DNA from: Paractinoplanes bogorensis
Lineage (GTDB): Bacteria; Actinomycetota; Actinomycetes; Mycobacteriales; Micromonosporaceae
Assembly: GCF_018829635.1 (NCBI RefSeq)
Contig: NZ_JAHKKG010000007.1
Location: forward strand, 558,001-622,000
Length of the DNA stretch: 64,000 nt
Reading direction: 5' to 3'
In this document: piece after piece, positions 13,489-38,116 of the stretch
How the letters are laid out: every line of letters begins with the position of its first letter
How positions within the stretch are numbered: the first letter of the stretch is position 1
Position numbers and translations under genes: made by a program
The notes under the pieces: model-generated
What the model was told of the DNA's origin: nothing
What the model saw: only the letters and a program-made list of their open reading frames with translations
Databases searched by the model: none

Positions 13489-13805
13489 ATCGTTTCCTGT
13501 TGATTTCGGGCAGATTTCCGATGGTCTGGTCAGGAGATCCGGTGCACTTGGGTCGGTTGATCGGCTAGGGCTGTACCCGCGCTGTGAGCGAGACGTTACG
13601 GTGGGGAGGCGTCAGAGCGGTTGTGGCTGGTGGCACGAGTGCGTCGTGACCAGGCTGATTCGAAATTCTTTGACCGGACGGCCCATCCGCGGGCGCGCCG
13701 AACACGAATAGACAAGCAGGAGTACACAGGAAAGTGCTTTCCCGGGGTGCCTGCCGGGTAAGAGACCCGGGCACGGGTGCTGGCGTCCATCGGCGAGGTG
13801 ATGTG
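13489..13805. other. 317-bp leader region with two hairpins
   Basis: No gene is seen. The first part is AT-richer than its neighbours. Near the 3' end are two strong stem-loops (13729-13774) shortly upstream of the response-regulator start, so this is probably an untranslated leader with a regulatory structure. Confidence 0.5.
13729..13774 (+). promoter_or_regulatory. Paired hairpins in a 5' leader (class unknown)
   Basis: Stem 1 is GGAAAG-TG-CTTTCC (13729-13742). Stem 2 is CCGGGT-AAGAG-ACCCGG (13754-13770), extended by GTGC/GCAC (13747-13750 and 13771-13774). The second ends 31 nt before the GTG start at 13806. No known riboswitch consensus was recognised. Confidence 0.45.
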
Positions 13806-14411
13806 GTGATCCGTGTTGCGGTGGCCAGAGACGAGGGATACTTCGGTGTCCCGGTCCGAGCCCTGCTCGAGTCGAACCCCGATATGCATTTCATCGGCAC
13901 GCTCCCGTTCGGCAACGACCTGCCGCAGGTGGCGTCCGAGATGTGGCCCTCCGTGATCGTCATCGACACGGAATACATGGTGAGTCAGGTGCTGCCGGTC
14001 GCGAACGCGGTCCGCTCGGCCAACCCGTCGTGCGCGCTGCTGCTGCTCTGCGATCCCAACAAGCGCGGCATGCTGCCGCCCCGGCACCGGTCCGGCCCGC
14101 TCAACTTCCTGCCCAAGGACGCCTCGGCCAACCTGCTGGCCGACTCGGTGCGCCGGCTGGCGGGCGGCGAACGTGTGGTCTCGGCCCGGCTCCAGACGGC
14201 CTCGCTGCTCACCGACAAGGGCCTGACCACCCGCGAGCTCGAGGTGCTGGGGCTGGCGGCCGAGGGCGAGCCGGTCAAGGAGATCGCCCGCAAGCTGTTC
14301 CTGTCCGGCGGAACGGTCCGCAACTATCTGTCGGCCATCATCGCCAAGACCGGCGCGCGCAACCGGCTCGACGCGATCCGGATCGCGCGCAAGGACGGCT
14401 GGTTGCGCTGA
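13806..14411 (+). CDS. LuxR/NarL-type response regulator
   Basis: 201 aa: an N-terminal receiver-like domain and a C-terminal LuxR HTH. The receiver has the phospho-acceptor-like Asp in SVIVIDTEYM and the conserved Lys in NFLPKDAS, but the usual paired N-terminal acidic residues read ARDEG, so phosphorylation may be altered. The HTH contains LTTRELEVLGLAAEG and SGGTVRNYLSAIIAKTGARN. The GTG at 13806 follows GAGGTGATGTG; a GTG one codon earlier is also possible. No kinase gene is adjacent, so it is an orphan regulator. The structured leader suggests post-transcriptional control. Confidence 0.88.
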   Translation: MIRVAVARDEGYFGVPVRALLESNPDMHFIGTLPFGNDLPQVASEMWPSVIVIDTEYMVSQVLPVANAVRSANPSCALLLLCDPNKRGMLPPRHRSGPLNFLPKDASANLLADSVRRLAGGERVVSARLQTASLLTDKGLTTRELEVLGLAAEGEPVKEIARKLFLSGGTVRNYLSAIIAKTGARNRLDAIRIARKDGWLR

Positions 14412-15131: not shown

Positions 15132-16190
15132 TCACGCTCTCACCCGCTCGTAGAGATCGCCTACCTCGGCCGCCATCCGCCCGGCGTCGTAGCGGTCGCC
15201 GGCCGACCGTGCCTCGAGCCGTTCGCCCGCCCGCTCGGCCCAGCAGATGACCTCGGCCCGCAGCGCCCGGGGCAGCGACTCCGGATCGTGCGGGGTGAGC
15301 CGGCGGGCCCCGTCGACCCGGATGCCCTGCAACGGCTCGCACGCGGCGTACAGGACGGGCAACCCGGTGGCGAGCGCCTCGAGCACGACCAGCCCGTACG
15401 TGTCGCGGCCGGGTGACGCGAAGACGTCCATGGCGCAGAGCATCTCGCGCGCGTGCGGCACCGGCCCGGCGAACAGCACCCGGTCGGACACTCCCTCGAT
15501 CGCGGCCAGCCGTTCCAGCGCGTGCCGGGCCGGGCCGTCGCCGACCAGCAGCAGCATCGCGCCGGGCACCTCGCCCACGGCCCGGATCAGGACGTCGAAC
15601 CGTTTACGCGGTTCGAGCTGACCGAGGCCGCCGATCACCGGGGTGCCGGGCGGAATCCGCAACCGCTCGCGCACCGCCGCGCGCAGCTTCGGGTCGAAGC
15701 GGAACTCGCGGACGTCGAGGGCCTTGGGGATCGTGGTCAGCCGGTCGCCCGGTACGCCCCAGCGGCGCAGCCGGTCGGCGATCATCGTGGACACCGCGAT
15801 GGTCACCCGCTTCCCGGCCCGGTGGGCGAGCACGTTGGGGCGCCCGTCGTCGAGGTGATATTCGGTCGCGACCACGAGCGCCACCCCGGCCAGCCAGGCG
15901 GCGAACCGGCCCTGCAGACCGGCCCGGAACAGATGGGTGTGCACCACGTCGAAGCCACCGCGACGGGCCAGGCGGCGCAGCCGGCCGATCGTGCCCGGGT
16001 CGAGGTCGCGGTTGCTGAGCAGTTCGTGCACCGCCGTGCCGTCCTCGCGCAGCGCGGACAGCACCGGTCCGGGCGGCGACAGCGTCGCCACCTCGCACTG
16101 CTGCGGCAGGTGACGGATCAGCAGGCGCAGTTGATGTTCGGCGCCGTCGCCGGCCGGGGCGCTGATCACGTGCAGCACCCGAACGGCCAT
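15132..16190 (-). CDS. Family 4 glycosyltransferase (EPS locus)
   Basis: 352-aa GT-B enzyme that would transfer a sugar from a nucleotide donor to a lipid-linked acceptor on the cytoplasmic side. The N-terminal domain starts VRVLHVISAPAGDGAEHQL. The donor-binding C-terminal domain has GLGQLEPRKRFDVLIRA, LLLVGDGPARHALE and the EX7E-like region SPGRDTYGLVVLEALATGLP. The ATG at 16190 follows GGGAGGCGACAA; an in-frame start at 16283 is rejected. It diverges from the dehydratase gene and lies on the side towards which the shared 50-bp element points. Confidence 0.92.
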   Translation of the reverse strand: MAVRVLHVISAPAGDGAEHQLRLLIRHLPQQCEVATLSPPGPVLSALREDGTAVHELLSNRDLDPGTIGRLRRLARRGGFDVVHTHLFRAGLQGRFAAWLAGVALVVATEYHLDDGRPNVLAHRAGKRVTIAVSTMIADRLRRWGVPGDRLTTIPKALDVREFRFDPKLRAAVRERLRIPPGTPVIGGLGQLEPRKRFDVLIRAVGEVPGAMLLLVGDGPARHALERLAAIEGVSDRVLFAGPVPHAREMLCAMDVFASPGRDTYGLVVLEALATGLPVLYAACEPLQGIRVDGARRLTPHDPESLPRALRAEVICWAERAGERLEARSAGDRYDAGRMAAEVGDLYERVRA

Positions 16191-16530
16191 TTGTCGCCTC
16201 CCGTCATGCCTATTGTCGGCAATACGATTGCGCGCCCCTCGAAATGGACATTCGCAGAGGTCGGGCATGAATGTAAGGCGCAAATGTCACGCCGAACGAG
16301 AGCGTTATTCATGTTCATTTCTCGATCTTCCGGCCGTGATATGCCTGGCCAGGTGCGGTGTCATGTCGAACATGAGGAAACCTCAGATCCCGCATGACAA
16401 TTGCTACTGTATTCATCCGCCCTCGCCTGACACGCTCGGGACGCGGCGATGAAAGCGCTTCTGAAGTGATTATGGGGCGCATTTTTATTTGCCTGACGAA
16501 GCTCCCCGGCGTCCGCGCAAGGAGGAATTC
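16191..16530. other. 340-bp divergent promoter region of the EPS locus
   Basis: No gene. It is AT-richer than its surroundings, with several short dyads. It holds one copy of a 50-bp element also found at 38067-38116 and must contain the promoters of the GT4 gene (minus) and the dehydratase operon (plus). Confidence 0.6.
16360..16409 (-). promoter_or_regulatory. Shared EPS regulatory element, copy A
   Basis: Read on the minus strand, this 50-bp block matches 38067-38116 at 38 of 50 positions without gaps, starting with an identical CAGTAGCAATTGTCAT. Both copies contain TTGTCA, 17 nt, then YCTCAT, compatible with a -35/-10 pair, and a TGAG...CTCA dyad. This copy also has the palindrome TCATGT-tcg-ACATGA (16361-16375). 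It points to the GT4 gene at 16190. Confidence 0.65.
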
Positions 16531-18408
16531 ATGCAGCTTCGCAGTGCGGCGCCCCGTGAGGAGATCGACTCCCCGGGCCGATGGCCGGGCACCCGCCGGA
16601 TCCTGCCCGGCCGGGCAGGACGGGCCGGCGTCGACGCGCTGGCCCTGACCATCGCGCTGCTCCTGGCCACGGTGCTCCGCCACGACGGCAACCTGGCCGA
16701 GTCGCACATCCCGCAGGTGCTGGTGCTGTCCGTGTTCGCGGCCGTCGTGCACACCGCGGTCGGGTACCGGTTCGGGCTCTACACCGGCCGATGGGCGTAC
16801 GGGTGCTTCGAAGAGATCCTGGCCCTGGCCAAGACCGCGGCCGTCACCACTCCGGTGCTGTTCGTCCTCGACACCCTGCTCGGACGGCTCGTGCCACGGT
16901 CGGCCATCATCGCCTCCGGCCTCATCGCCCTGGTGCTCGCGGCGGGTGCGCGTTATGCCGTACGCCTGGCGCGCGACCAGCGATTGCGACCGTCACCCGA
17001 GCACGGCGCCCGGGTGGTCGTGATGGGTGCGGGCGAGGGCGCGGCCCAGGTCGTCCGGGCCATGCTGCGCAACCCCGACAGCCCGTACTACCCGGTCGCC
17101 CTGCTCGACGACGACCCGGCCAAGCGCGCGCTGCAGGTGATGGGCGTACCGGTGGCCGGCACCCGGCACGCGATGGCCCAGGTGGTCAGCCGCTACGAGG
17201 CCGACGTCGTGCTGATCGCCATTCCCAGTGCGGGCGCTGACCTCGTACGGGAACTGACCGATCTCGCTCGTCCGACCGACGTCGAGGTGAAGGTCGTGCC
17301 GCCGGTGGTCGAACTGTTCGGCCGCACGGTCAGCGTCGACGACATCCGCCCGGTCAGCCACGCCGACCTGCTGGGCCGGCGCGAGATCGGCCTCGACATG
17401 CGGGCCATCGCCGGCTACCTGACCGGCAAGCGCGTGCTCGTCACCGGGGCCGGCGGCTCGATCGGTTCCGAGCTGTGCCGCCAGCTGATCCGGTTCGACC
17501 CGGCCGCGCTGGTGATGCTCGACCGCGACGAGTCCGGGCTGCACGCGGTGCAGCTCTCGATGGACGGCCGCGGCCTGCTCGACGACCGCAACCTCGTGGT
17601 CGCCGACATTCGCGACCAGGAACGCCTCGACGAGGTGTTCGCCGAGCACCGGCCCCAGGTGGTGTTCCATGCCGCCGCCCTCAAACACCTGCCGCTGCTC
17701 GAGATGCACCCGTCCGAGGCCCTCAAGACCAACATCCTCGGGACCTACCAGATCCTGCAGACCTCACTGCGTCACGGCGTCGAGCGGCTGGTCAACATCT
17801 CGACCGACAAGGCCGCCGATCCGGGCAGCGTCCTCGGCTACTCCAAGCGCATCACCGAACGGCTCACCGCCGCGGCCGACGAGGCCGGTGACGGCACCTA
17901 CTGCAGTGTCCGGTTCGGCAACGTGCTGGGCAGCCGCGGCTCGGTGCTGACCGCGTTCGCCGCCCAGGTCGAGTCGGGTGGCCCGATCACGGTCACGCAC
18001 CCCGAGGTCTCGCGCTTCTTCATGACCGTGCAGGAGGCCGTACGTCTCGTGGTGCAGGCCGGTGCGCTCGACAGTCACGGCGAGGTGCTGGTGCTCGACA
18101 TGGGTGAACCGGTGCGCATCGCCGACGTCGCCCGCCGCCTGGCCGACGCCGCCGAACGGCACATCTCGATCGTCTACACCGGACTCCGGCCCGGCGAGAA
18201 GATGCACGAGAGCCTGTTCGGCGCGCACGAGAAGGACCTGCGCCCCAGCCATCCGCTCATCTCGCAGGTGCCCGTGCCGCCGCTCGACGGGGCCGCGCTC
18301 AGCCTGCTCCACCCGACGTCGACCCGGCCCGAGCTGATCGCCGTCATGCGCTGGCTCGCCGAGAGCCCGGCCCTCTCCGTCGCCCGTCAGTTCCTGAAAG
18401 CCAGTTGA
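16531..18408 (+). CDS. Membrane nucleotide-sugar 4,6-dehydratase (CapD/FlaA1/PglF-like)
   Basis: 625 aa. About four transmembrane helices (residues about 30-140) precede a Rossmann CoA-binding-like domain (VVVMGAGEGAAQVV, about 167) and the SDR catalytic domain (VLVTGAGGSIGSELCRQL, about 301). The catalytic STDKAADP motif and GYSKR are present. This family makes UDP-4-keto-6-deoxy sugars, commonly from UDP-GlcNAc, for bacillosamine- or QuiNAc-type residues. The start follows AAGGAGG 5 nt away. It heads the left EPS operon; with the DegT enzyme at 36106-37245 it could make a 4-amino-6-deoxy sugar (inference). Confidence 0.9.
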   Translation: MQLRSAAPREEIDSPGRWPGTRRILPGRAGRAGVDALALTIALLLATVLRHDGNLAESHIPQVLVLSVFAAVVHTAVGYRFGLYTGRWAYGCFEEILALAKTAAVTTPVLFVLDTLLGRLVPRSAIIASGLIALVLAAGARYAVRLARDQRLRPSPEHGARVVVMGAGEGAAQVVRAMLRNPDSPYYPVALLDDDPAKRALQVMGVPVAGTRHAMAQVVSRYEADVVLIAIPSAGADLVRELTDLARPTDVEVKVVPPVVELFGRTVSVDDIRPVSHADLLGRREIGLDMRAIAGYLTGKRVLVTGAGGSIGSELCRQLIRFDPAALVMLDRDESGLHAVQLSMDGRGLLDDRNLVVADIRDQERLDEVFAEHRPQVVFHAAALKHLPLLEMHPSEALKTNILGTYQILQTSLRHGVERLVNISTDKAADPGSVLGYSKRITERLTAAADEAGDGTYCSVRFGNVLGSRGSVLTAFAAQVESGGPITVTHPEVSRFFMTVQEAVRLVVQAGALDSHGEVLVLDMGEPVRIADVARRLADAAERHISIVYTGLRPGEKMHESLFGAHEKDLRPSHPLISQVPVPPLDGAALSLLHPTSTRPELIAVMRWLAESPALSVARQFLKAS

Positions 18409-18417: not shown

Positions 18418-19674
18418 ATGCGGGTCGTCATCGTCGGTCAGGGATACGTCGGGCTGCCCCTCGCGGTCCGGGCGGCCCGGGTCGGCCACCACGTCGTCGG
18501 CTTCGACGTCGACGACGAGCGGATCAAGCGGCTGGCCGCGGGCGAGTCCTACGTGGACGACGTCTCCTCGGCCGACCTGCGCGAGCTGCTCGACGCCGGA
18601 ACCTTCCACCCGTCGGCCGATCCGCGGTCGTGCGCGGGCTTCGACATCGCGGTCATCGCCGTGCCCACGCCCCTGCGCGAGGGCACACCCGACCTCAAAT
18701 ACATCGAGGAGTCGGCCCGCACCCTGGCCCGCTACCTGCGGCCGGGCGCGACCGTGGCGCTCGAGTCGACCACCTATCCCGGCACCACCACCGACCTGGT
18801 CGCGCCCCTGCTCGAAGAGGGCTCCGGGCTGATCGCGGGCGACGACTTCTTCCTCGGCTACAGCCCCGAGCGCATCGACCCGGGCAACCGCGAGTGGACG
18901 CTGGAGACGACACCCAAGGTGGTCTCGGGCATCAACCCGGCGTCGCTGGAACGGATCGACGCGTTCTACCGCCAGATCGTGGCCAAGACCGTGCCGGTCG
19001 CCGACTGCAAGACGGCCGAGCTGGCCAAGCTCCTCGAGAACACGTTCCGGCACGTCAACATCGCGCTCGTCAATGAGCTCGCCGTCTTTGCCCACGCCCT
19101 CGGCATCGACGTGTGGGAGGCCATCGACGCCGCGTCGTCCAAGCCGTTCGGCTATCTGCGCTTCGTGCCCGGGCCCGGCGTCGGCGGCCACTGCCTGCCG
19201 ATCGACCCGTCCTACCTGTCCTGGCGCGTGCAGCGGACCCTCGGCCAGAGCTTCCGCTTCGTAGAGCTGGCCAACGACATCAACAACCACATGCCGGATT
19301 ACGTCGTACGCCGTCTGGTCGCGGCCCTGAACACACAACGCAAGGCGGTCAACGGCTCGACCATCCTGCTGCTCGGCCTGGCCTACAAGAAGAACAGCGG
19401 CGACGCCCGCGAATCGCCGGCCCGCCGGGTCGCCTCACTGCTGCTCGACATGGGCGCCGACGTGCGGGCGGCCGACCCCCACGTGGTCGAGGACGCGCAG
19501 GTCGACCGGCGCGTCGTGCGGGTCTCCCTGACCGCTGCGCAACTGGCCGAAGCCGACGCGGTGGTGCTGCTGGCCGACCACGACGAGTTCGACCTTTCCC
19601 TCATCGCCGAGAACGCGGCGTACGTGCTCGACACCCGCCGCCGCCTGACCGGAGAGAACGTGGAGACGCTGTGA
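18418..19674 (+). CDS. Nucleotide-sugar dehydrogenase (UDP-glucose/ManNAc type)
   Basis: 418 aa. It oxidises the C6 alcohol of a UDP-sugar to the acid with two NAD, supplying uronic or aminouronic acid residues. The N-terminal Rossmann motif [14 protein letters not shown] matches the WecC/TviB-like branch more than UDP-glucose dehydrogenase proper. The catalytic Cys259 is in [15 protein letters not shown], and [15 protein letters not shown] lies before it. GAGGAG precedes the ATG by 6 nt. It is 9 nt after the dehydratase, and its stop overlaps the next gene. Confidence 0.93.
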
Positions 19675-24522: not shown

Positions 24523-25095
24523 GTGGGCGGTCGGTTCGTGTACTGGATGAACGTGTCGGCCGATCTGCGGATCGAGCACGCCGCCGGTGAGCAGGGTGGC
24601 GGCGAGTGGATGCGGATCGGCGAGCCGCTGCACCGCGAGTTCAACCGGCGGGCGCGGGCGCTCTCGGCGATGGTCCAGGGGCGCACGATCTACGAGACCA
24701 TGGAGGGCTTCTGGCCCGCCGCGCGTGCGGACGAGTCGCTGCCCGACTTTCTGCGGGAGTACGGCGAGATCTGGACATCAAAACCGAAGATCCTGGTTTC
24801 CCGTACGCGGACAAGCGCCGGACACAACACGACAGTGGCCGCGTCGATCGAGGAACTGGCCGAGCTGAAGAGCCGGACCGAGGGCGACATCGGGGTCGGC
24901 GGCGCGACGGTGGCTACCGGTCTGCTGCGGGCCGGGCTGCTCGACGAGTTGCTGCTCTTCACGCACCCGGTCGTCCTCGGCGCCGGTCGCCCGCTGTTCG
25001 ACGACCAGGTCGCCCCCGTCGAGCTCGACCTGCTGGAACACGAGGCCTTCGACGAGGGCGTCCTGTTGCATCGATACGAAGTGCGTTATCGGTAG
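24523..25095 (+). CDS. Dihydrofolate-reductase-like (RibD C-terminal) protein
   Basis: 190 aa of the DHFR/RibD-C superfamily: an N-terminal strand FVYWMNVSADLRIEH, MVQGRTIYETMEGFWP, then EGDIGVGGATVATGLLRAGLLDELLL and HPVVLGAGRPLF. Members reduce pteridine- or flavin-type substrates with NADPH, but most of this actinobacterial branch is uncharacterised. GGGAGG stands 4 nt before the GTG. Its 3' end overlaps the convergent FemAB-like gene by 10 nt. Confidence 0.85.
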   Translation: MGGRFVYWMNVSADLRIEHAAGEQGGGEWMRIGEPLHREFNRRARALSAMVQGRTIYETMEGFWPAARADESLPDFLREYGEIWTSKPKILVSRTRTSAGHNTTVAASIEELAELKSRTEGDIGVGGATVATGLLRAGLLDELLLFTHPVVLGAGRPLFDDQVAPVELDLLEHEAFDEGVLLHRYEVRYR

Positions 25096-26090
25096 GGCGG
25101 GAAACGGCCCATCAAGGAATCAGCAGTGGCCGGGCCGGCCAGTTTTTCGAAGTTGCACGGGTCGGTGATCACGCGCCAGGTGTGGAAGTCCTGGCGCCCC
25201 GACCCGAACTGCGACTTGTAGCGGAACAACGAATCGGCCGAGCCGCCGACCCCGCCGCCCAGGTGGTACACCGTGTTGCCGCGGTCGCGGCCCCACATCC
25301 GTACGGCGTGGTAAAGCAGTTTGTCGGCGTAGTGGATCGGTGCGTCCGCGGTGGATTGCAGGTGGGTGTGCATGGTGCCCGCGTACTCGAAGAACAGGTT
25401 GCCCCCGAGGACCTCGCCGTCGAGAGTCGCCACGGCGAGATGAACATGGTCGGCGAGAGCCGTGCGCAGCCGGTGGAAATGGGCGGCGCTGAAGAAGTAG
25501 AAGGCGGTCGCCCCGACGCGGCGCATCGTGGCGTGGTAGGTGTCGATCCATTCGTCGAACCGGGACCAGTCGTCGAAGGTGATCTCGACTCCGGCCCGGG
25601 TGGCCTTGCCGATCTGGTTGCGGTGACTGCGATGGGTCTGCGACCACAGCTCGTCGGGGCTGAGCGTGAGGTCGATCGAGACGGTCTCGCCGTGGTTCAC
25701 CAGCGTGCCGGCGACGGCCAGAGCCTCCGAGTGGCCGGGAAGCAACGGATGGAGCCGCGCGAACGCGGTGACCACCCCCTCGGTGCAGAGGAGTTCGGTC
25801 ATCGTGCCGGCCGCACGTGACCAGAAGGCAGCGTCATCACTGCCCACGGGGCCCGGATACCCGTACGGGGAAATCGCGTCCTGCAGGTCGGTGTCGGGCA
25901 CCGGCCGGAGCAGCAAGGGGAGGAGAAAGACGCGTCCCGCCTCGTCGTATCGGTAGGCCACCGGAGTGCCGCCGGTCAGGCCGGCGTCGAGCCGCACGTA
26001 CTCGGGGATGTGGTAGATGTCATGCCGGACCCGGTCGAGCGCCTCCGTCCAAGCCGGATCCTGGGGTGACAGCAGTGCGGCATCTGCCAT
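25086..26090 (-). CDS. FemAB-like acyl/aminoacyltransferase, second copy
   Basis: 334 aa with the double-GNAT FemAB-like fold. The N-terminal part includes DAISPYGYPGP; the C-terminal GNAT half includes LWSQTHRSHRNQIGKA, GGNLFFEYAGTMHTHL and HLGGGVGGSADSLFRYK. It is a clear paralogue of 27315-28328: same length, same landmarks, both ending FPPYR. FemABX proteins move amino acids from tRNA to peptidoglycan precursors; EPS-linked relatives may acylate amino sugars. It is last in the 10-gene EPS operon, 3 nt after the monooxygenase gene. Confidence 0.82.
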   Translation of the reverse strand: MADAALLSPQDPAWTEALDRVRHDIYHIPEYVRLDAGLTGGTPVAYRYDEAGRVFLLPLLLRPVPDTDLQDAISPYGYPGPVGSDDAAFWSRAAGTMTELLCTEGVVTAFARLHPLLPGHSEALAVAGTLVNHGETVSIDLTLSPDELWSQTHRSHRNQIGKATRAGVEITFDDWSRFDEWIDTYHATMRRVGATAFYFFSAAHFHRLRTALADHVHLAVATLDGEVLGGNLFFEYAGTMHTHLQSTADAPIHYADKLLYHAVRMWGRDRGNTVYHLGGGVGGSADSLFRYKSQFGSGRQDFHTWRVITDPCNFEKLAGPATADSLMGRFPPYR

Positions 26091-26093
26091 AGG

Positions 26094-27305
26094 TCAACCT
26101 CCTGTTAGTAGGGGAACTCCCATCTCGGCGTCGGGGCGGCGCCGAGCGCGGTTCCATCGCCGGGCGCTCAGGGCCGACCGCAGCATCGCGCGCGGAACCG
26201 AGCGCTGGGTGCTCAGGTGCAACAGGTACCGCCACAATGGATACTCGCCGCGGCGGTTGGACAGGGCATAGGAGAACTGCGCGGAGGGCAGATCCGCGTA
26301 TTCGGGCATCCGCTCGAACCATTCGCTGCTGGCCAGCGCGGCCCGCTGCAACGGGACGAGGTCGGCGCGGCGGCGGTGCTCGTAGCGCTCGAGGGCAACC
26401 GGCAGCGGGGCGCCCGAGGCGACCGCGTCGGCCAGCGCCATGGCGTCCTGCATGGCCAGCTTGGTGCCCGAGCCGATCGCGAAGTGGGTGGTGTGCGCGG
26501 CGTCGCCCATCAGCACCACGTTGCCGTTGTCCCAGCGCTGGTTGGTGACCCGGCGGAAGCTCATCCAGCCGGTACCGCCCGCCTCGGCCCGATGGTCGAT
26601 CAGCCGTTCGCCGCCCAGGTGCCGGGCGAAGATGGTCTCGAGCCGGGCGCATCCGGCCGCCCCGTCGAGCCGGTCGAGCTCCAGCGCCGACCAGACCGCG
26701 GGTGTGCACTCGACGATGAACGTGCTGGTGCCGTCGTCGAACGGGTAGGCGTGGTACCAGATCCAGCCCGCGTGTGTCTTTTCGAAGCCGAACGTGAACG
26801 TGTCGAAGACATGTTTGGTGCCGAGCCAGATGTACTTGTTGCGACCCATGTCGACCGACGCGCCGAAGTGGGACGCGTCCTGTGACCGGATCGCCGAGCC
26901 CGCCCCGTCACATGCCACTACCAGGTCCGCGTCCGGAACGACCGACAAATCGGACGAGTATCGGATGTCGACCCCGAGCTCCGAGGCGCGCGTGCCGAGG
27001 ATCGACAGCAATTTGTGGCGGCCCAGACTGAATCCGTAGCCGGGCAGGTGGGAGACCGACTTGCCGGTCGCGCGCACCTCGTACTCGTCCCACCGGCAGG
27101 CCGCGTCCGAGATCCGGCGGGCACTGACCGGGTCGTACGCGAAAAGGTCGTCCAGAAGGTCGTCCCAGAAGACGACCCCCCAGCCGTACGTGACGCCGGC
27201 CGGATTGCGTTCCAGCACGGTGACGTCGTGCGCGGGGTCGGCCAGTTTGGCCAGCACCGCGAAGTAGAGACCGGCGGGCCCGCCGCCGACACAGGTGATC
27301 CGCAT
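26094..27305 (-). CDS. FAD-dependent aromatic monooxygenase-like protein
   Basis: 403-aa class A flavoprotein hydroxylase. The FAD dinucleotide motif VGGGPAGLYFAVLAK is at residues 6-20, and the second FAD motif is VVLMGDAAHTTHFAIGSG. The GWGVVFWD segment after the first strand-helix resembles the salicylyl-CoA hydroxylase and VioD subgroup. These enzymes hydroxylate aromatic or indolic substrates with NAD(P)H and O2. Such an enzyme is unexpected between two FemAB-like genes in an EPS operon. The substrate is unknown. Confidence 0.82.
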   Translation of the reverse strand: MRITCVGGGPAGLYFAVLAKLADPAHDVTVLERNPAGVTYGWGVVFWDDLLDDLFAYDPVSARRISDAACRWDEYEVRATGKSVSHLPGYGFSLGRHKLLSILGTRASELGVDIRYSSDLSVVPDADLVVACDGAGSAIRSQDASHFGASVDMGRNKYIWLGTKHVFDTFTFGFEKTHAGWIWYHAYPFDDGTSTFIVECTPAVWSALELDRLDGAAGCARLETIFARHLGGERLIDHRAEAGGTGWMSFRRVTNQRWDNGNVVLMGDAAHTTHFAIGSGTKLAMQDAMALADAVASGAPLPVALERYEHRRRADLVPLQRAALASSEWFERMPEYADLPSAQFSYALSNRRGEYPLWRYLLHLSTQRSVPRAMLRSALSARRWNRARRRPDAEMGVPLLTGG

Positions 27306-27314
27306 GGCGCGCTC

Positions 27315-28328
27315 CTAGCGATAGGGCGGGAAAGTCCCCGATTCGTCGGTCTCACGACCCAGGGCAAAGACCATTTCCTCGTACGCGGGCCGGTCGGCCA
27401 CGATCCGCCAGGTGTGGAACGGATGACGCCGCGGGGAGAACCCGGCCTTGTACGTGAACAGCGAGTCCTCGGCGCCACCCTTGCCCCCGCCGAGGTGGAA
27501 CACCGTGTCGCCACGGGACTTGCACCATCGCCGGACCTCGTCGTAGAGCATCTCGTCGGCGTACCGCTTGGGCGCCCGCCGCGTCGAGGACACGTATCCG
27601 GTGGCAATGCCGTGATGCTCGAAGAAGGTGTTGCCCCCGACCACCTCGCCGTCCTCGAGCGCCACGGCCAGGTGCATGCGGTCGCCCATCAGGTCGTGCA
27701 TGGCGACCAGGTGCTCGCGGGTGAAGAAGTAGTAGTCCGACGCGCCGACCCGCCGCATGTTGTCGTGATAGACGTCGACCCACTCGCCGAGCCGGTCCCA
27801 GTCGTCGAACACGACCTCGGTGCCCGCCCGCCGCGCCCGGTTGATGTGGTTGCGGTGATCGCTGCGCGTTTGTGACCACATCTCCTCGTGGCTGACCGTG
27901 AGGTCCATCGAGACGGTGTCGCCGTGGTGCACCATCGTGCCGAACCGGCTCAGCAACGGCAGCGGGGCGGGCAGCAGCGGGTGCATCCGGACGAACGCGG
28001 TCACCACACCCTCGCCCCGCAGCGTCTCGAGCATGGCCATGCAGGCCCGCTCCCAGAAGTCCCGGTCGCCGGGCATCGCGTCGCTGGCCGGGCCCGGGTA
28101 GCCGTACGGGGAAATCGCATCGCGCAGACCCGTGCCCGGGATCTCGCGCAGGATGAGCGGGAGCAGGAGTTGCCGGCTGCCGTCGGAATACCAGAAGGCG
28201 GCCGGGGTGCCGGAGGTCAGCGCCGCGTCCAGGGTGATGTATCCGGGCAGGTGGTACGTGTCGTGCCGGGTGCGGTGCAGAGCCTCCTTCCATTCGCGTG
28301 CCGCCGGTCCCACGAGCGCAGCAGTCAT
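27315..28328 (-). CDS. FemAB-like acyl/aminoacyltransferase, first copy
   Basis: 337 aa, same architecture as 25086-26090, with DAISPYGYPGP, MWSQTRSDHRNHINRARRAG, GGNTFFEHHGIATGYVSS and HLGGGKGGAEDSLFTYK. The ATG at 28328 is chosen because AAAGGAG lies 6 nt upstream; an in-frame start at 28472 would overlap the lipoprotein gene. The pair flanks the flavin monooxygenase, suggesting the three act on one decoration. Substrate and donor are unknown; no aminoacyl-tRNA or NRPS gene is nearby. Confidence 0.82.
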   Translation of the reverse strand: MTAALVGPAAREWKEALHRTRHDTYHLPGYITLDAALTSGTPAAFWYSDGSRQLLLPLILREIPGTGLRDAISPYGYPGPASDAMPGDRDFWERACMAMLETLRGEGVVTAFVRMHPLLPAPLPLLSRFGTMVHHGDTVSMDLTVSHEEMWSQTRSDHRNHINRARRAGTEVVFDDWDRLGEWVDVYHDNMRRVGASDYYFFTREHLVAMHDLMGDRMHLAVALEDGEVVGGNTFFEHHGIATGYVSSTRRAPKRYADEMLYDEVRRWCKSRGDTVFHLGGGKGGAEDSLFTYKAGFSPRRHPFHTWRIVADRPAYEEMVFALGRETDESGTFPPYR

Positions 28329-28339
28329 GTCTTTCTCCT

Positions 28340-29482
28340 TTACGGACGCAGGATCCGCGCATTGAGCGCCATGTTGGCGGCGAACTGGTCGTTGACCACG
28401 CGATGACTCTCCAGCCGCTGCTGGACCCCCGGGTCGAAGCGGCCGAGCTTGACGAAGCCGTCCGAGAGCCATCCGTTGTCGGCACCGGTGCCGTCCACGT
28501 AGGCGCGATAGGTTGTGCCGCCGGGCCAGACGACCCGGGTCAGCAGGCGGGAGAAGGCCGCCATATCGGTCTTGGTCCAGGTGGTGCCGTGGTCACGGGC
28601 CTCCACCACGTACGCCATGACACCGTTGCCGTGGCTGACGTCCTGTCCCGGCCGCGCACCGGAACCCCAGACGTCGCTCCAGAAATAGGCCGTGGCCTCG
28701 GCCGGGTTGCGCCGCATCTGCTGTTTGAGGCCGCCGCTCTGGCCGGGCATGTGCTGGTCGACGTCGGCGACAACGCGTTGATATCGCGCACGACGCGCGG
28801 TGTCGGCGGTGACCAGGGACAGGTTCTGAGCGATCAGGGCCCAGTGTGAGGCCATGTGGGTACGCTCGCGATAGATGGTGTCGTCGGGGCCGCGCGAGTA
28901 CCACTTCTCGAACACGTGCTTCTCGGCGAACGAGAGCAGCCGGGTGTAGCGGGCCCGGTACGCCGAATTGGCGTACACGGAAGGGTTTTGCCGGATGGCC
29001 GTGAGCAAGGCCGTGCCGTACCGCCAGAAATAGCTCTCATAGAGCGGCACCTCGGTGCCGTCCTCCTGCGCGCTCGTCCAGCCGAGGTAGCCGCCGCGCA
29101 CTCCCTTGGCCGTGCCGACCACGTTCTCGGTGTATTGCAGGGCGCGGTCGAGGTAGCGATTCTCGCCGGTGGCCCGGAACATGGCGACGAGAGCATCCAC
29201 TGTGTACGAAACGTTGTAGTGGTCCCAGCTGTCGCCCGAGCGGGTCATCGGCAGGGCCGTGCGGGTCTGGTAGTCCCAGGAACGCAGGAACATCTCGGCC
29301 CAGTGGCTGACCGGTTTGAGGGTGGCCGCCGCGACCGCCGGGCCCTCGGGTTCGGCCGGCAGCGGGCTCATCACCTGAGCGGCGTCGTCTTCCCGGACGC
29401 CGCAGGCCACGGCCGTGCCCGCCGCGGCCGCCACACCCAGAGCGCCCAATCCCCCCAGCAACAGAGCCCGTCGAGCGATCAT
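28340..29482 (-). CDS. Exported lipoprotein with predicted helical-toroid domain
   Basis: 380 aa. The signal peptide is MIARRALLLGGLGALGVAAA with a twin-arginine-like pair and a lipobox at TAVAC, so the mature protein would be lipid-anchored at Cys27. The rest is mostly helical with repeats of aromatic residues (WDHYNVSYTVDALVAMFRAT, RYLDRALQYTENV, HWALIAQNLSLV), the look of an (alpha/alpha)6 glycoside hydrolase or polysaccharide lyase. I cannot assign catalytic residues. A role in trimming or releasing the exopolymer is inferred from its position in the operon. Confidence 0.65.
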   Translation of the reverse strand: MIARRALLLGGLGALGVAAAAGTAVACGVREDDAAQVMSPLPAEPEGPAVAAATLKPVSHWAEMFLRSWDYQTRTALPMTRSGDSWDHYNVSYTVDALVAMFRATGENRYLDRALQYTENVVGTAKGVRGGYLGWTSAQEDGTEVPLYESYFWRYGTALLTAIRQNPSVYANSAYRARYTRLLSFAEKHVFEKWYSRGPDDTIYRERTHMASHWALIAQNLSLVTADTARRARYQRVVADVDQHMPGQSGGLKQQMRRNPAEATAYFWSDVWGSGARPGQDVSHGNGVMAYVVEARDHGTTWTKTDMAAFSRLLTRVVWPGGTTYRAYVDGTGADNGWLSDGFVKLGRFDPGVQQRLESHRVVNDQFAANMALNARILRP

Positions 29483-30672
29483 GCGTGCACCTCCTCACGT
29501 ACCGGGGCCACCGCCGGCACCACGGCGGCCGCCGCGGCCAGTGCGGCGAACATCCAAGCCAGCCGTGAGTCGTAGTAGTCACCGGAGAACAGGCTGCTCA
29601 GCCCGACGAACACCGCCGCCGAAACCGCCAGCCCGGTCAGTTTCGGGCGGTGGCCACCGCCGTACACCGTCTTTGTCCACAACAACACGGCCGTGGTGAG
29701 CAGCCCGATGCCGATCAGGCCACCCTCGGCCGCGACGGCGAGCACATAGTTGTGCGGGTATTCCACGAACTGGTTGACGCCGATGATCCCGTAGAAGCCG
29801 TCCAGCCCGGCCCCCGCGATCGGATGGTCGACCGCGAGCTGCCACGCCGCCGCCCAGATGCTGGTGCGGTCGGACAGATAGCGTTCCTGCACGGTCTGCT
29901 CGACGAACCTCTCCTGGAACAGGCTGGTGAACGCGGGCGGCGCGAACGCCCAGATCACGGTCACGGCCGCGGCCACGAAGACGAACGCGCCCGCCACCGC
30001 CCCCGGATGCAGCCGGCGCCGGATCTTGAACAGGGCCACCCCGCCCACCGCGGCCGCCGCCAGCAGACCGGCCCGCGAACCGGAGAGCACGGCGGCCAGG
30101 CCGAACAGGGGAGTGGCGAGCAGCCACAGCAACCGGCGGTGGATCATCGCCAGCGCGATCGCACTGATCACGCCGAGGATCTCGATGCGGACGAAGACGT
30201 TGGGGCCGCCGCCGAAGGCCGAGTAGCGGCCCTGCTCGCCCGGCCCGTTGATGAACAGGGCGGCCAGCGCGAACACGATCGCGGCCACATAGAACAGCAG
30301 GAACGCCTGGCGCACGACGGTTTCAGGGTCGCCCACGGCGTACAGGTAAAGGGCTATGACCAGCGCACCCATGAGCAGCAGGTCGACGGTCTGCGGGCCG
30401 ACCCGCGAGGCCGACGGCGCCCACAGGCCGGAGGCGATCTGGAACAGGAAGAACAGCACCATCGCGACGAGCCAGCCCTCACGCGTTCTCGGCGCCGGCG
30501 TGGCCGGCCGCCGGGCCACGTCGATGATGAGGACGGTCAGGGCCAGCAGCAGCCCGACCACGCGCAGGTCGACCCAGACCAGGTCGGGATAGCCGGCGCG
30601 GTCGAGCGTGAACCGGCCGCCGATCGCCACCAGGATCAACAGCAGGCCGGGAGCCGTCAGCGTCCGTTTCAC
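29479..30672 (-). CDS. Wzy-like O-antigen ligase/polymerase
   Basis: 397-aa integral membrane protein with about 11-12 helices and a large external loop in the C-terminal half. That loop contains DHPIAGAGLDGF and EYPHNYVLAVAAEGG, the O-antigen ligase/polymerase (Wzy_C-type) hallmark with the conserved His. It would polymerise undecaprenyl-linked repeat units outside the membrane. The GTG at 30672 overlaps the flippase stop and uses AAGGAG inside the flippase gene; the stop overlaps the lipoprotein ATG. Confidence 0.87.
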   Translation of the reverse strand: MKRTLTAPGLLLILVAIGGRFTLDRAGYPDLVWVDLRVVGLLLALTVLIIDVARRPATPAPRTREGWLVAMVLFFLFQIASGLWAPSASRVGPQTVDLLLMGALVIALYLYAVGDPETVVRQAFLLFYVAAIVFALAALFINGPGEQGRYSAFGGGPNVFVRIEILGVISAIALAMIHRRLLWLLATPLFGLAAVLSGSRAGLLAAAAVGGVALFKIRRRLHPGAVAGAFVFVAAAVTVIWAFAPPAFTSLFQERFVEQTVQERYLSDRTSIWAAAWQLAVDHPIAGAGLDGFYGIIGVNQFVEYPHNYVLAVAAEGGLIGIGLLTTAVLLWTKTVYGGGHRPKLTGLAVSAAVFVGLSSLFSGDYYDSRLAWMFAALAAAAAVVPAVAPVREEVHA

Positions 30673-31940
30673 TCCTTGCCGCCCGTCACCCGGTTGGTGA
30701 TCAGCGCGAACAGCAGGCACGAGCCGTACCCGATCAGCGAACCGTAGGCGGCGCCCAGGATGCCGAACGGCGGGATCAACAGCAGATAGGCGGCGAAGCT
30801 GACGACGAAACCGGTGATCTCGGCCGCCGACACCAGGCTGCCGCGGCCCTTGGCGATGAGCAGGCCCAGGGTGACCCGCGACACCGCGTACAGCCCGGCC
30901 GCCGCCACCAACGGCACCACGACCGACTTGGCCTGCGCGTATTCATGCCCGAAGACCGGCACGATCAGCAGGTAGAGCCCACCGGCCGCGATCGGCGCGA
31001 CGACCAGGCAGTAGGCGGCCACCGCGAGCAGGATCGGCCGGGTCGGCAGACCGTCGGTGTTGTGCGCCTGCCGCCACTTGCCGAGCTTGGCGTCCGCGTA
31101 CGCCCGGACCGGCCAGGCCAGAAGTTCGGTCATCGTGGCCACGGCGGTGTAGATGCCGAGCGCCGACGTCGAGGCGAGCGCGGGCAGGGCCAGCCGGTCC
31201 GAGCGCAGCATCGCCATGTTCGAGATCGCGGCCGGGAACAGGGACAACCCTTCCCGCCGGACCAGCCGGTTGTGGTCGGGCGCCTCCGGACCGGGCCTCC
31301 GCAGCCAGACGATCAGGTAGGCCACCGTCGGCAGCAGCCCCGCCACCAGATAGGCGACGATCCAGATGGCCGGCGTGGTGGTGTTGGCCAGATAGAGGAC
31401 GACGAGCAGCGCGAGCAGGATCAGCGCCTCGACGATCCGGCAGATCAGGAAGTCGCCCACCCGCCCGGCCGCGATGGCGATCGAACGCGTGGCCAGCCCG
31501 GCCACCTCGACCAGCGTGTAGGCCGCGATCAGCCCGATGACGAGCAGCCCCGGGTTGTAGTGATGCGGCGCCAGCACTTCATAACCCGCCGCCAGCAGAA
31601 GCCCGACACCACAAGGAACAACCAGCAGTTTCCCGTACGCCTTCACCGCCGCGGCCGGGGTCACCTCGTGATAACTGGCGACGAAGCTACGTTCGGTGCC
31701 GAGCAGCATGAACTGGGTAGCCAGGTAGACGACCTGCAGCATCAGCGCGACCTCACCCCGATGGGCCGGCGCCAGGGCCCGCACCATCAGGATGTTGGCC
31801 ACAAAGGCGACGCCACCGGTCAGCAGCTGAGAGGCGAAGAGCTGCACGTACGGCTCCCGCAGCAGCCCGCCGACCCAGGCCGCCGCACTCTTTTTCGCGA
31901 CCGGTTCGGTGAGCGGGCGCTCCGCCTGGAGCTCACTCAT
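30669..31940 (-). CDS. Wzx-like polysaccharide flippase
   Basis: 423-aa MATE/Wzx-type protein with about 12-14 membrane helices. It starts LFASQLLTGGVAFVANILMV, and the ISNMAMLRSDRLALP and GLYAVSRVTLGLLIAKGRG segments are typical. It would flip the lipid-linked repeat unit across the membrane. The start at 31940 (MSELQAERP) overlaps the previous gene by 8 nt; a longer in-frame start lies inside that gene and is rejected. Confidence 0.88.
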   Translation of the reverse strand: MSELQAERPLTEPVAKKSAAAWVGGLLREPYVQLFASQLLTGGVAFVANILMVRALAPAHRGEVALMLQVVYLATQFMLLGTERSFVASYHEVTPAAAVKAYGKLLVVPCGVGLLLAAGYEVLAPHHYNPGLLVIGLIAAYTLVEVAGLATRSIAIAAGRVGDFLICRIVEALILLALLVVLYLANTTTPAIWIVAYLVAGLLPTVAYLIVWLRRPGPEAPDHNRLVRREGLSLFPAAISNMAMLRSDRLALPALASTSALGIYTAVATMTELLAWPVRAYADAKLGKWRQAHNTDGLPTRPILLAVAAYCLVVAPIAAGGLYLLIVPVFGHEYAQAKSVVVPLVAAAGLYAVSRVTLGLLIAKGRGSLVSAAEITGFVVSFAAYLLLIPPFGILGAAYGSLIGYGSCLLFALITNRVTGGKE

Positions 31941-34605
31941 GCCCGTTCTCTTCCGTGGGCTCGTCCTCGGCCACGGCGGCTTTCCCCTGCACGACAGCTT
32001 TCCCGTGCCCGTTGAGCGAAACCGCGGCCCGGTCCGCCCGCACCGGCGGCACAATCCGCTGCGTGATCATGCCGTCGTCCTCACCGCGCGGCCGCACCGG
32101 AAACAGCCGCTGCACCTTGTCCCCGTCGTCCTCCTCGTCCGGGCTGCGCGCCGCAGTCGTTTGTTGCGCGGTGGCGTCCGGGTCGTTCGGGTTGCGCGCC
32201 GCGGTCGTTTGTTGCGCGGTGGCGTCCGGGTCGTTCGGGTTGCGCGCCGCGGTCGTTTGTTGCACGGTCGCGTCCGGGTCGTTCGTGGCGGGGCTCTGGA
32301 CCGTTCTGCCATCGGGTGTGCGCGTTGCGGTCTGTTGTTGCACGGTGGCGTCCGGGTCGTTTGGCGTGCGCGTGGTGCTCGTTGGTTGCGCGTTGTTGTC
32401 CGGGCCGCTCGGGTTGCGCGCGGTGGCCGTTTGTTGCGCGGTTTTGTCGGGGTCGTCGTCGGGGATGCGCGCTGCGCTCACTTGTTGCACGGTGGCGTCT
32501 GGGTCGTTCGGTGTGCGCGTGGTGTTCGCTTGTTGCACGTTGTTGTCCGGGTCGTTCGGTGTGCGCGTGGTGCTCGCTTGTTGCGCGTTGTTGACCGGAT
32601 CGTTCGAGGTGCGCGCGGCGGTCGCTTGTTGCGCGTTGTTGGCAGGGGCGCCCGGGTTGCGCGACGTGGACGCCTGCTGCACGGTCACTTCATCGTTCGC
32701 CGCGCGCTGCTCGACGTCCGCGGTCCGGGTCACGGTCAGGCGCTGCACCTTGTCCCCGTCGTGCTCGCCCGGGCTCTGGATCGGGATGCGCTGAGTGCGC
32801 TCCACGTCCTCCGGCTCCGGCGGACGCACCGGGATGATGCGCTGAGTCCGGTCGCGGTCGTCGGCGGCCGGTCTTTGTATGTCTCGTCCGGCCGGGTTCT
32901 GCACGTCGGTGTCCGGCGCGTGCATCGTGCCGGGCGATCGCTGCGCGTTGTTGTTCGTCCCGTAAGCGGTGCCGCCCGCTGACTGCGCGTTGTTGTTCGT
33001 GCCGTAAGCCGGGCTAGCCGTTGATTGCACGTTGTTGCTCGTGCCGTATGCGGTGCCGCCCGTTGATTGCACGTTGTTGTTCGTGCCGTAGGCCGGGCCG
33101 GCCGCTGATTGCGCATCGGTGGGCGCCTTGTGTGCGATGTCGGCCGTTCGCCAGGTGGCCAGCGCCGTCTGCGAGACGTCGGTGTCGACCCGGGCCCGGC
33201 CGCTGACCGGGTTGGCCGGGGGCTGCGGCTCGTCGTGCGCGGGCGTGCCCAGCAGCGTGGTGACCAGCCCTGGGCTGTCGATCGGTTCGGTGATCGCGGG
33301 CGCCGCGGCCCGGGTGTCGGGCAGCCGCCGCGGCAGCGCGTTGAGCACCGCCCCGACCAGCCGCGCCCCGACCCGCTCGAGCAGGTCGGTCGAACGGCGC
33401 ACGTCGGCCGTACGGGTGCGCCCGGCCCGCACCACCAGCAGCGCGCCGTCGGTCACCTTGCTGAGCACCGTCGCGTCGGCCACCGTGTGCAACGGCGGGG
33501 CGTCCACCAGCACCACGTCGAAGCGCCCGGCCAGCTCGCCGAAGGTCGCGGCCAGCCGCGGCGACGACAGCACCTCGCCCGGGTCGGGCCGTTTCTCGCC
33601 CGGCGGCAGCACGGTCAGCCGCCCGCCGAGCGGATCCCGCAGCACATCGCTCACCCGGGCCCGCCCGGCCAGCACATCGGCCAGGCCGGGGCCGGCGTCC
33701 ATCGAGAGATAGCGGCCGACGCCGGGCGAGCGCAGGTTCCCGTCCACGAGCAGCACCCGCGCACCGGTCTCGGCCAGCGCGATCGCCAGCCCGCAGGCCA
33801 CCGCGGTCGTCCCCTCCTTGGGGTTGGCCGCGGTCAGCAGCAGGGTGGTGCCCCGGGCCGAGGCGGCCTGCTTCTCGGTCACGTCGGCCGGCAGCAGGCT
33901 GCGCAAACGGCGGAAGGCCTCGGCGATCGCGGAGTCGGCCTGCCCCTTGCGGGCCCAACGCCCGCTGAGCGAGATGACACCGACCGTCCCGATCCCGAGC
34001 CGGCGCAGATCGTCCTCCTCGGCGACCGTCTTGCGGGTCGCCTCGCGCACCGCCACCCCGACTCCACCCACGAGGAGTCCGAGCACGGCCGAGAACCCGA
34101 TGTTGCGCGCGAGGTTGCCCGGCTCCTGCGTGGTGACCGCATCCTGGGCGATGGTGATCTGCGGCGGTGGCCCGCTGTCGGCCGTCGTGGTCGGCGGGTC
34201 GAGCTTCTTGGCCAGCGCGACCAGCGCCGACGTGGCGTTGGTGACCATCGTCTTGCTGCGCGCGGCCGACGGGTCGGTGGCCGTCACGACGAGCAGGTCA
34301 GTGCCCGCCTGCACCTCGGCGGTCAGACTTTCCTGCACCCGTTCGGTGGTCAGCGGCGGGCCCATCTTGGCCACCACGTTCTGCGCCACCCGGGGCCCGG
34401 TCAGCAACGCGATGTACGAGTTGAGCCGGCTCGCCTTGGCGTCCGGATCGCCCGACCCGGTCGTCACGAACAGCACCATCGACGACCGGTAGGCCGGTTC
34501 CTGGGTCAGCGACAGCCCCGCTGCCGCCCCCATCGCCAGCAGGATCGGCACCACGATCCAGACCCATCGGCGCCGGCAGGCCCGCACATACTCGCGCAGT
34601 TCCAC
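31933..34605 (-). CDS. Wzz/Wzc-like co-polymerase with degenerate P-loop and repeat tail
   Basis: 890 aa. Residues 1-190 form a Wzz domain between two membrane helices (WVWIVVPILLAMGAAAGL and NIGFSAVLGLLVGGVGVAV). Residues about 250-440 are a BY-kinase-like ATPase with Walker B DVVLVDAPPLHTVAD and Walker A' VLLVDGNLRSP. Walker A reads NPKEGTTAV, so the GK[S/T] lysine is missing and kinase activity is doubtful. A tail of about 400 residues follows with a 4 x 14-residue Tyr-containing repeat (AYGTNNNVQSTGGT), QR[IL]xPVRP-like motifs and about ten 16-residue NDPDATVQQTTAARNP-type repeats. It likely controls chain length and export; the tail could be a phosphorylation or interaction region (inference). 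Confidence 0.82.
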   Translation of the reverse strand: MELREYVRACRRRWVWIVVPILLAMGAAAGLSLTQEPAYRSSMVLFVTTGSGDPDAKASRLNSYIALLTGPRVAQNVVAKMGPPLTTERVQESLTAEVQAGTDLLVVTATDPSAARSKTMVTNATSALVALAKKLDPPTTTADSGPPPQITIAQDAVTTQEPGNLARNIGFSAVLGLLVGGVGVAVREATRKTVAEEDDLRRLGIGTVGVISLSGRWARKGQADSAIAEAFRRLRSLLPADVTEKQAASARGTTLLLTAANPKEGTTAVACGLAIALAETGARVLLVDGNLRSPGVGRYLSMDAGPGLADVLAGRARVSDVLRDPLGGRLTVLPPGEKRPDPGEVLSSPRLAATFGELAGRFDVVLVDAPPLHTVADATVLSKVTDGALLVVRAGRTRTADVRRSTDLLERVGARLVGAVLNALPRRLPDTRAAAPAITEPIDSPGLVTTLLGTPAHDEPQPPANPVSGRARVDTDVSQTALATWRTADIAHKAPTDAQSAAGPAYGTNNNVQSTGGTAYGTSNNVQSTASPAYGTNNNAQSAGGTAYGTNNNAQRSPGTMHAPDTDVQNPAGRDIQRPAADDRDRTQRIIPVRPPEPEDVERTQRIPIQSPGEHDGDKVQRLTVTRTADVEQRAANDEVTVQQASTSRNPGAPANNAQQATAARTSNDPVNNAQQASTTRTPNDPDNNVQQANTTRTPNDPDATVQQVSAARIPDDDPDKTAQQTATARNPSGPDNNAQPTSTTRTPNDPDATVQQQTATRTPDGRTVQSPATNDPDATVQQTTAARNPNDPDATAQQTTAARNPNDPDATAQQTTAARSPDEEDDGDKVQRLFPVRPRGEDDGMITQRIVPPVRADRAAVSLNGHGKAVVQGKAAVAEDEPTEENGHE
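32134..32640 (-). repeat. About 48-bp coding repeats in the co-polymerase tail
   Basis: About ten imperfect copies of a 16-codon unit (consensus near NDPDATVQQTTAARNP) lie in frame at the C-terminal end of 31933-34605. Some copies are nearly identical in DNA (32160-32270). Copy number is likely to vary among strains. Confidence 0.8.
32926..33093 (-). repeat. Four 42-bp coding repeats with one Tyr each
   Basis: Exactly four 14-codon units in frame: AYGTNNNVQSTGGT, AYGTSNNVQSTASP, AYGTNNNAQSAGGT, AYGTNNNAQRSPGT. They lie just after the ATPase domain of the co-polymerase. Confidence 0.88.
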
Positions 34606-34608
34606 GCC

Positions 34609-36084: not shown

Positions 36085-36105
36085 CCCGCTATCCCTTGGC
36101 TCTCG

Positions 36106-38008: not shown

Positions 38009-38066
38009 CGGCACCCTCCGGCTCACTTCGTCCGCATCAACCTTTCCAAGCGGCGCGCAACGATGT

Positions 38067-38116
38067 CAGTAGCAATTGTCATAAGGAATGTGAGGACTTC
38101 TCATGTCATTTATGAC
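38067..38116 (+). promoter_or_regulatory. Shared EPS regulatory element, copy B
   Basis: Plus-strand partner of 16360-16409, with 38 of 50 identical bases and the same CAGTAGCAATTGTCAT block. It contains TTGTCA-N17-TCTCAT. It lies between the divergent deacetylase operon (minus) and the FemAB-like gene (plus) and points to the latter. Confidence 0.65.

What the first reader, a model, noticed from the sequence alone, without database searches (positions are those of the whole stretch)
16360..16409. A 50-bp element shared by both divergent promoter regions of the EPS locus
Read on the minus strand, this block matches 38067-38116 at 38 of 50 positions without gaps, beginning with 16 identical bases (CAGTAGCAATTGTCAT). 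The two sites are 21.7 kb apart, in opposite orientation, each between divergently transcribed EPS genes. Such conservation outside genes suggests a common regulator or sigma factor coordinating the two EPS blocks.
Basis: seen in the sequence. Interest (0 to 1): 0.7.

Follow-up and report, generated by a model that had tools for sequence, protein, structure and literature searches.

The report
Shared promoter switch for exopolysaccharide genes
In Actinoplanes soil bacteria the same promoter-side DNA signal sits in front of each block of one sugar-coat gene cluster, and it was found only in genomes that also carry a particular unstudied regulator gene, so the two probably form one dedicated control circuit.

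Summary
In detail: 38 of 50 bases match, far above chance. The 50-mer contains most of a composite promoter element: a palindrome (ACRTGAR-N5-YTCRYGT), a nearly invariant block (RTGACANNTGCNACTG) and, about 20 bp on, an extended -10 (YTG-N-NANNNT). A profile finds exactly these three in the 10.19-Mb genome. Copies stand at 47 of 47 and 48 of 48 orthologous promoters examined in Actinoplanes. Of 300 family genomes 53 have it: 51 of 67 Actinoplanes and two from other genera. The likeliest binder is the orphan, DesR-like NarL/FixJ response regulator at window 13734-14411: the element pattern is present in 51 of 52 Actinoplanes genomes with an ortholog and 0 of 15 without. The two outside genomes carry a relative of it too, one adjacent to the element, one 12 kb away. 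Binding and activation are inferred, not shown. The operon matches wps-3 of A. missouriensis (PMC13390465). A real, lineage-specific EPS regulon; new member of a known kind.

The parts
16370..16388 (+). Site A palindrome ACATGAGGAAACCTCAGAT, facing the FlaA1-like gene (proposed response-regulator dimer site)
   Evidence: the corresponding palindrome columns are conserved in 47 orthologous promoters
16394..16409 (+). Site A proximal block ATGACAATTGCTACTG
   Evidence: 12 or more of 16 positions matched in 47 of 47 orthologous promoters
16427..16436 (+). Inferred extended -10 of the FlaA1-like promoter, CTGACACGCT; start point inferred near 16443
   Evidence: (conserved columns +33 to +42); the identical 10-mer is at the same distance in G109 and a 9-of-10 match in G094
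16296..16314 (-). Site C palindrome, facing the GT4 gene
   Evidence: profile E 6.9e-6 in the own genome
16275..16290 (-). Site C proximal block GTGACATTTGCGCCTT (weaker); CTGCGAATGT at 16257-16248 is its inferred extended -10
38088..38106 (-). Site B palindrome ACATGAGAAGTCCTCACAT, facing the deacetylase operon
   Evidence: profile E 2.6e-9
38067..38082 (-). Site B proximal block ATGACAATTGCTACTG
   Evidence: 13 or more of 16 positions matched in 48 of 48 orthologous promoters
38040..38049 (-). Inferred extended -10 of the deacetylase operon, TTGGAAAGGT; start point inferred near 38033
13734..14411 (+). Orphan NarL/FixJ-type response regulator (225 aa as listed, P0001), the candidate binder; true start probably near codon 24-26
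   Evidence: GerE domain; DesR 4ldz E 1.4e-23 over residues 25-224; ortholog in 46 of 47 A loci
15132..16190 (-). GT4-family glycosyltransferase, unit facing site C
   Evidence: start ATG read from the sequence
16531..18408 (+). FlaA1/PseB-like sugar-nucleotide dehydratase (Polysacc_synt_2), first gene facing site A
18418..19674 (+). UDP-glucose/GDP-mannose dehydrogenase family, next gene of the site A unit
25086..38008 (-). Operon facing site B: deacetylase, DegT aminotransferase, GT4, Wzz/BY-kinase, Wzx, Wzy, unassigned, acyltransferase, FAD enzyme, acyltransferase; same order as wps-3 of A. missouriensis
   Evidence: PMC13390465 section 8

Best explanation
The 50-bp block is part of a composite activator-dependent promoter that turns on the two halves of one Wzx/Wzy exopolysaccharide locus together. 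An orphan DesR-like response regulator encoded 2 kb away (13734-14411) binds as a dimer to the palindrome ACRTGAR-N5-YTCRYGT and probably as a second unit to the adjacent RTGACANNTGC block, one to two helical turns downstream. This places it just upstream of a weak -35 region and an extended -10, where it recruits RNA polymerase carrying the ordinary sigma factor. Three such promoters (GT4, FlaA1-like, deacetylase operon) form the regulon of this genome. Shown by computation: the element, its conservation, its orientation to genes, its rarity, its co-occurrence with the regulator. Inferred: binding, dimer arrangement, -10 and start points, activation rather than repression.
For: Element in 47 of 47 and 48 of 48 orthologous promoters; a matrix trained on one promoter set finds every member of the other above the highest background score. 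Exactly three profile hits in the own genome. Regulator ortholog in 52 of 67 genus genomes; element pattern in 51 of those and 0 of the 15 others (Fisher 4.6e-14, not corrected for relatedness). G009, G022 and G050, which lack the window's deacetylase and dehydratase orthologs at the thresholds used (G022 has only a 54% dehydratase relative), keep regulator and element 10-12 kb apart; in G009 and G050 the element faces a Bac_transf sugar transferase. In G094, another genus, the element lies between the regulator (70%) and a Bac_transf gene. In G109 it faces a sugar-transferase-like gene (read by eye) with a 49% regulator 12 kb away; the six other genomes of that genus searched have no regulator better than E 2e-35 and none of the six shows the element except two weak one-mismatch matches. 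Inferred -10 keeps its distance across genera. In nine genomes the deacetylase ATG is at +50/+51 and in five an unassigned gene's ATG is at +49/+50, fitting leaderless starts. NarL-family orphan regulator BldM uses GTGA/TCAC half-sites too (PMC4125116, passages).
Against: No binding or expression data. Most co-occurrence comes from physical linkage and shared descent within one genus. G057 has a 67% ortholog but no element found. Relatives at 51-58% in G108, G120 and G139 have no element within the 6-9 kb inspected around them. Three weak sites stand before a WD40 protein (G043) or genes without a Pfam match (G061, G059), so not every copy is at EPS genes. The divergent acetyltransferase gene at 38208 has no composite site of its own. 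The one-mismatch pattern also gave 20 hits when read backwards in the 67 genomes, so single one-mismatch hits mean little.
Confidence: 0.77

Rival explanations
1. A different, more widely conserved regulator, for example an ortholog of the developmental regulators BldM/WhiI, binds the element, and the neighbouring regulator is a bystander of the locus.
For: BldM is also an orphan NarL-type regulator with GTGA/TCAC half-sites, and A. missouriensis wps-3 is switched on early in sporangium formation (PMC4125116 passages; PMC13390465 section 10).
Against: BldM's 16-bp site TCACcCgnncGgGTGA has the half-sites in the other order with 8 bases between; here the nearest such arrangement, TCRY-N7-RTGA, has 7 and no CC/GG arms. 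Of the window proteins compared, the candidate regulator is the only regulator shared by the loci of G094, G009 and G050 and also present in G109. Presence of BldM itself in these genomes was not searched.
Confidence: 0.13
2. The block is the recognition site of an alternative sigma factor rather than an activator site.
For: RTGACANNTGCNACTG is nearly invariant and directional, as promoter cores are.
Against: The upstream palindrome is equally fixed in spacing; a second conserved signal with extended -10 character lies at +33 to +43, and start codons of 14 genes lie 7-8 bases beyond it.
Confidence: 0.06
3. The regulator binds the element as a repressor.
For: Palindromic operators often serve repressors; wps-3 transcripts rose 2.3-4.1-fold in a tcrA mutant, so negative input exists somewhere (PMC13390465).
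Against: The palindrome and block lie upstream of the inferred -10 at a fixed distance, the usual place for activators.
Confidence: 0.15
4. Repeat, mobile element or structured RNA.
For: Imperfect dyad symmetry.
Against: Three copies per genome, promoter-oriented, no homology beyond the element; no Rfam match in 13500-39300.
Confidence: 0.01

Closest known systems
DesR (Bacillus subtilis) and the NarL/FixJ response regulators
   Same: Regulator aligns to DesR over its full length (residues 25-224, E 1.4e-23). Recalled, not looked up here: DesR binds tandem dimer sites upstream of the des promoter and activates.
   Different: Receiver pocket altered (E8 to R, T80 to C or S), no sensor kinase noticed next to it, targets are EPS genes.
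BldM / WhiI orphan atypical response regulators of Streptomyces
   Same: Orphan NarL-type regulators with altered receivers, GTGA/TCAC half-sites (PMC4125116, passages).
   Different: Half-site order and spacing differ; BldM regulates a development regulon, this one a few EPS promoters.
wps-3 gene cluster of Actinoplanes missouriensis
   Same: Predicted gene content and order of the deacetylase operon match AMIS_58080-AMIS_58170 (PMC13390465 section 8; window Pfam).
   Different: The paper tests only TcrA as regulator and finds no dependence (section 10); its main text has no occurrence of 'promoter', 'LuxR' or 'inverted repeat'.
RcsB-RcsA control of capsule genes in Escherichia coli
   Same: NarL-type regulator driving exopolysaccharide operons (mentioned in PMC4125116).
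   Different: Uses a partner protein and a phosphorelay; neither was found here.

Membership tests
NarL/FixJ response regulators | C-terminal GerE/LuxR helix-turn-helix | tested here: met
   PF00196 E 1.4e-15
NarL/FixJ response regulators | N-terminal receiver domain | tested here: met
   Sequence match to the DesR receiver chain 4le0, residues 25-153, E 1.3e-5; but no Pfam receiver hit at 0.001
NarL/FixJ response regulators | Complete phosphorylation pocket | tested here: not met
   Phospho-Asp kept in 51 of 51 and Lys in 48 of 51, but the first acidic residue is Arg in 50 of 50 with a residue there and the Thr is Cys/Ser in 51 of 51; Asn at the phospho-Asp in relatives of G108, G109, G120 and G139
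DesR/MadR equivalog | NCBIfam score above cut-off | tested here: not met
   Best model MadR 52.7 bits against a cut-off of 300
BldM Group I binding site | TCACCCG-N2-CGGGTGA palindrome | tested here: not met
   Spacing 7 not 8, no CCG/CGG arms
wps-3 cluster | Deacetylase, DegT, GT4, Wzz, Wzx, Wzy, unknown, BioF2-like, FAD enzyme, acyltransferase in this order | tested here: met
   Domain order against section 8 of PMC13390465; sequence identity to AMIS proteins was not computed by name
Response-regulator regulon | Direct binding of the regulator to the element | not testable with these tools
   Needs a gel shift or footprint

The most novel reading that the evidence does not exclude
The regulator belongs to a distinct subfamily of atypical response regulators (signature DT.YMVSQ.LP and DP.KRGMLPPR) that has drifted from phosphorylation control, with the phospho-Asp already Asn in other genera, and that senses something else, such as a sugar precursor or partner protein. 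Regulator and operator move and persist together with exchangeable EPS clusters, so the operator sequence can be used to list the EPS clusters under this control in the family.
Probability: 0.35. Interest if true: 0.6.

Novelty: new member of a known kind. Interest (0 to 1): 0.48.

Why it matters
Actinoplanes builds sporangia in a polysaccharide matrix. Wps-3 is known to be switched on as sporangia form, but the parts of PMC13390465 that I read name no regulator for it. A 41-base profile and one candidate gene turn this into a direct test, in a model species (A. missouriensis) where gene deletion is routine. It also gives a way to predict which EPS clusters in the family share this control.

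Tried and rejected
Full symmetric 39-bp element (GTCAT-N8-TGAGG-N3-YCTCA-N8-ATGAC) as the unit: found in 33 of 67 genus genomes at up to 2 mismatches with no control hits, but the outer GTCAT half is not general; the directional composite describes more sites.

TACTGT of the block as the -10: considered; dropped because position +16 is T in only 43 of 47 A sites and in 0 of 48 B sites, and because a better -10 with fixed distance to start codons lies downstream.

BldM/WhiI, sigma factor, repeat, RNA: see rivals. Other regulators of the window (LacI family 41282-42385): seen by tblastn in only some of the B loci. Second response regulator next to the G094 element: no match in the window. L024 (G048) and the G035:C19 hit (L191): taken as chance matches. 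Literature searches for a published regulator or element listed none that I recognised; only three papers were opened (outline/abstract, sections 8 and 10 and passages of PMC13390465; passages of PMC4125116; abstract and outline of PMC11960193). A search for DesR binding sites gave no paper that I opened, so what I say of the des operator is recalled.

I first called the 286-aa gene downstream of five extra sites a GNAT enzyme by eye; Pfam gives no match, so it is reported as unassigned.

Dropped rows: G030 was left out of the A set because its dehydratase match starts at residue 161; its sites are nevertheless found. Three of the 33 genomes (G061, G062, G065) were not among the 31 loci.

Full report
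Observation. The two 50-mers match at 38 positions, first 16 identical. Chance is excluded: 300 Markov resamplings of the two intergenic regions never exceeded 30. Both regions lie between divergent EPS genes.

What it is. A pattern search of the own genome (10,190,949 bases) for the symmetric form found these two places only. The same search in 67 genomes of the genus found it in 33, with no hit for the reversed control pattern. Of 31 loci compared with the window's proteins, 28 fall at one of the same two promoters (23 at GT4/FlaA1, 5 at deacetylase/acetyltransferase); three, L008, L012 and L024, do not. L008 (G009) has the element before a Bac_transf sugar transferase; L024 looks like chance.

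Unbiased test. Orthologs of the FlaA1-like protein (76% identity or more over the aligned part) and of the deacetylase were found in the same 48 of 67 genomes. I took the upstream DNA, leaving G030 out of the first set. The best match to the 16-base block within 861 bases was 12-16 of 16 in 47 of 47 and 13-16 of 16 in 48 of 48. A matrix trained on one set placed every promoter of the other set above the highest score of the remaining sequence (47 of 47; 48 of 48). Sites were anchored on the block, so its conservation is partly selected; that of the palindrome and of the -10 is not.

Anatomy, counting the first base of RTGAC as 0. Columns -24 to -6 form ACRTGAR-N5-YTCRYGT; 0 to +15 form RTGACANNTGCNACTG. 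At +33 to +43 a second conserved stretch reads YTG-N-NANNNT, offset by one base between the two promoter families. It has the form of an extended -10. In nine genomes the deacetylase ATG is at +50 (six) or +51 (three), and at five extra sites an unassigned 286-aa gene starts at +50 (four) or +49 (one), as expected of leaderless transcripts. The RTGAR, YTCRY and RTGAC half-sites are spaced 10 and 12 bases centre to centre, so all face one side of the helix. A site facing GT4 scores -11.9 or better in 46 of 47 A loci; the exception, G062, has no GT4 match there. No composite site faces the acetyltransferase at 38208. In the own genome the three profile hits have E 2.6e-9, 2.2e-7 and 6.9e-6.

Distribution. 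An exact pattern in 84,980 species genomes gave 51 stretches, 50 in Actinoplanes/Paractinoplanes/Amorphoplanes and one in a Nitrospinaceae assembly. The list is not exhaustive: closed chromosomes with the pattern, such as G034, are not recognisable in it. In 300 family genomes the profile found 53: 51 of 67 in the genus, G094 and G109 outside it; the profile was trained on 53 sites including theirs, but both had been found by pattern before. That pattern, with one mismatch, hit 13 genomes outside the genus; G083 was inspected and scores poorly, and apart from G094 and G109 none of them is listed with a profile match.

Candidate regulator. The gene at 13734-14411 is an orphan NarL/FixJ-type regulator closest to DesR among solved structures. 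It stands within 4.5 kb of the FlaA1-like gene in 46 of 47 A loci, and in the 47th (G061) about 6 kb further. It is 68-100% identical there, against 45-72% for VanZ and 54-79% for GT4. An ortholog (E 1e-60) is in 52 of 67 genus genomes. The element pattern is in 51 of these 52 and in 0 of the other 15 (recount); the exception is G057. Reversed control hits were 20 in the 67 genomes. Linkage and descent inflate this figure, so the independent cases matter more: G009, G022 and G050, whose EPS genes differ, keep regulator and element 10-12 kb apart; G094 has regulator, element and sugar transferase in a row; G109 has a 49% relative 12 kb from the element. Against it, G108, G120 and G139 have 51-58% relatives and no element within the stretch inspected.

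Receiver. The phospho-Asp is kept in 51 of 51 sequences, the Lys in 48 of 51, but the first acidic residue is Arg (50 of 50 with a residue there) and the Thr is Cys (48) or Ser (3). In G108, G109, G120 and G139 the phospho-Asp is Asn. Control may therefore not depend on phosphorylation. Motif-bearing relatives read GTVRNY in the helix; G120 and both G139 copies read GTVRNH, but G108 and G057 read GTVRNY without a found element, so this is only a hint.

Literature. The operon has the content and order of wps-3, activated on day 3 of sporangium formation, 2.3-4.1-fold up in a tcrA mutant, and without visible phenotype when deleted (PMC13390465: abstract, sections 8 and 10 and passages). BldM/WhiI are the nearest well-studied kind of regulator, with a different site (PMC4125116, passages). 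No Rfam family matches the region.

Verdict. Real, rare, functional-looking promoter element; a shared regulator is well supported and a specific candidate is proposed.

Noticed in passing
L178 to L182 (G012, G015, G027, G040, G047): A further copy of the element stands 33-34 bases before the start codon of an unassigned 286-aa gene (no Pfam match for the one scanned) outside the EPS locus in five genomes.
   Followed up: partly
L183:2644-5513 (G035): A second EPS locus in the same genome with two divergent copies of the element, before a Bac_transf sugar transferase and a sugar epimerase.
   Followed up: partly
L184, L185, L186: Weak copies before a WD40 protein (G043) and two genes without Pfam match (G061, G059); the only clear non-EPS candidates.
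   Followed up: partly
window 21908-25095: GNAT, DUF1152, cyclase-like and RibD_C genes lie between the two EPS blocks and look unrelated to EPS.
   Followed up: no
window 36106-37245: DegT aminotransferase is closest to the LegC-type model (380.7 bits, just under the 420 cut-off), hinting at an amino-sugar in the polymer.
   Followed up: no
L214 to L217: Relatives of the regulator with Asn in place of the phospho-Asp also lie near GT4-like genes in three of four loci.
   Followed up: no
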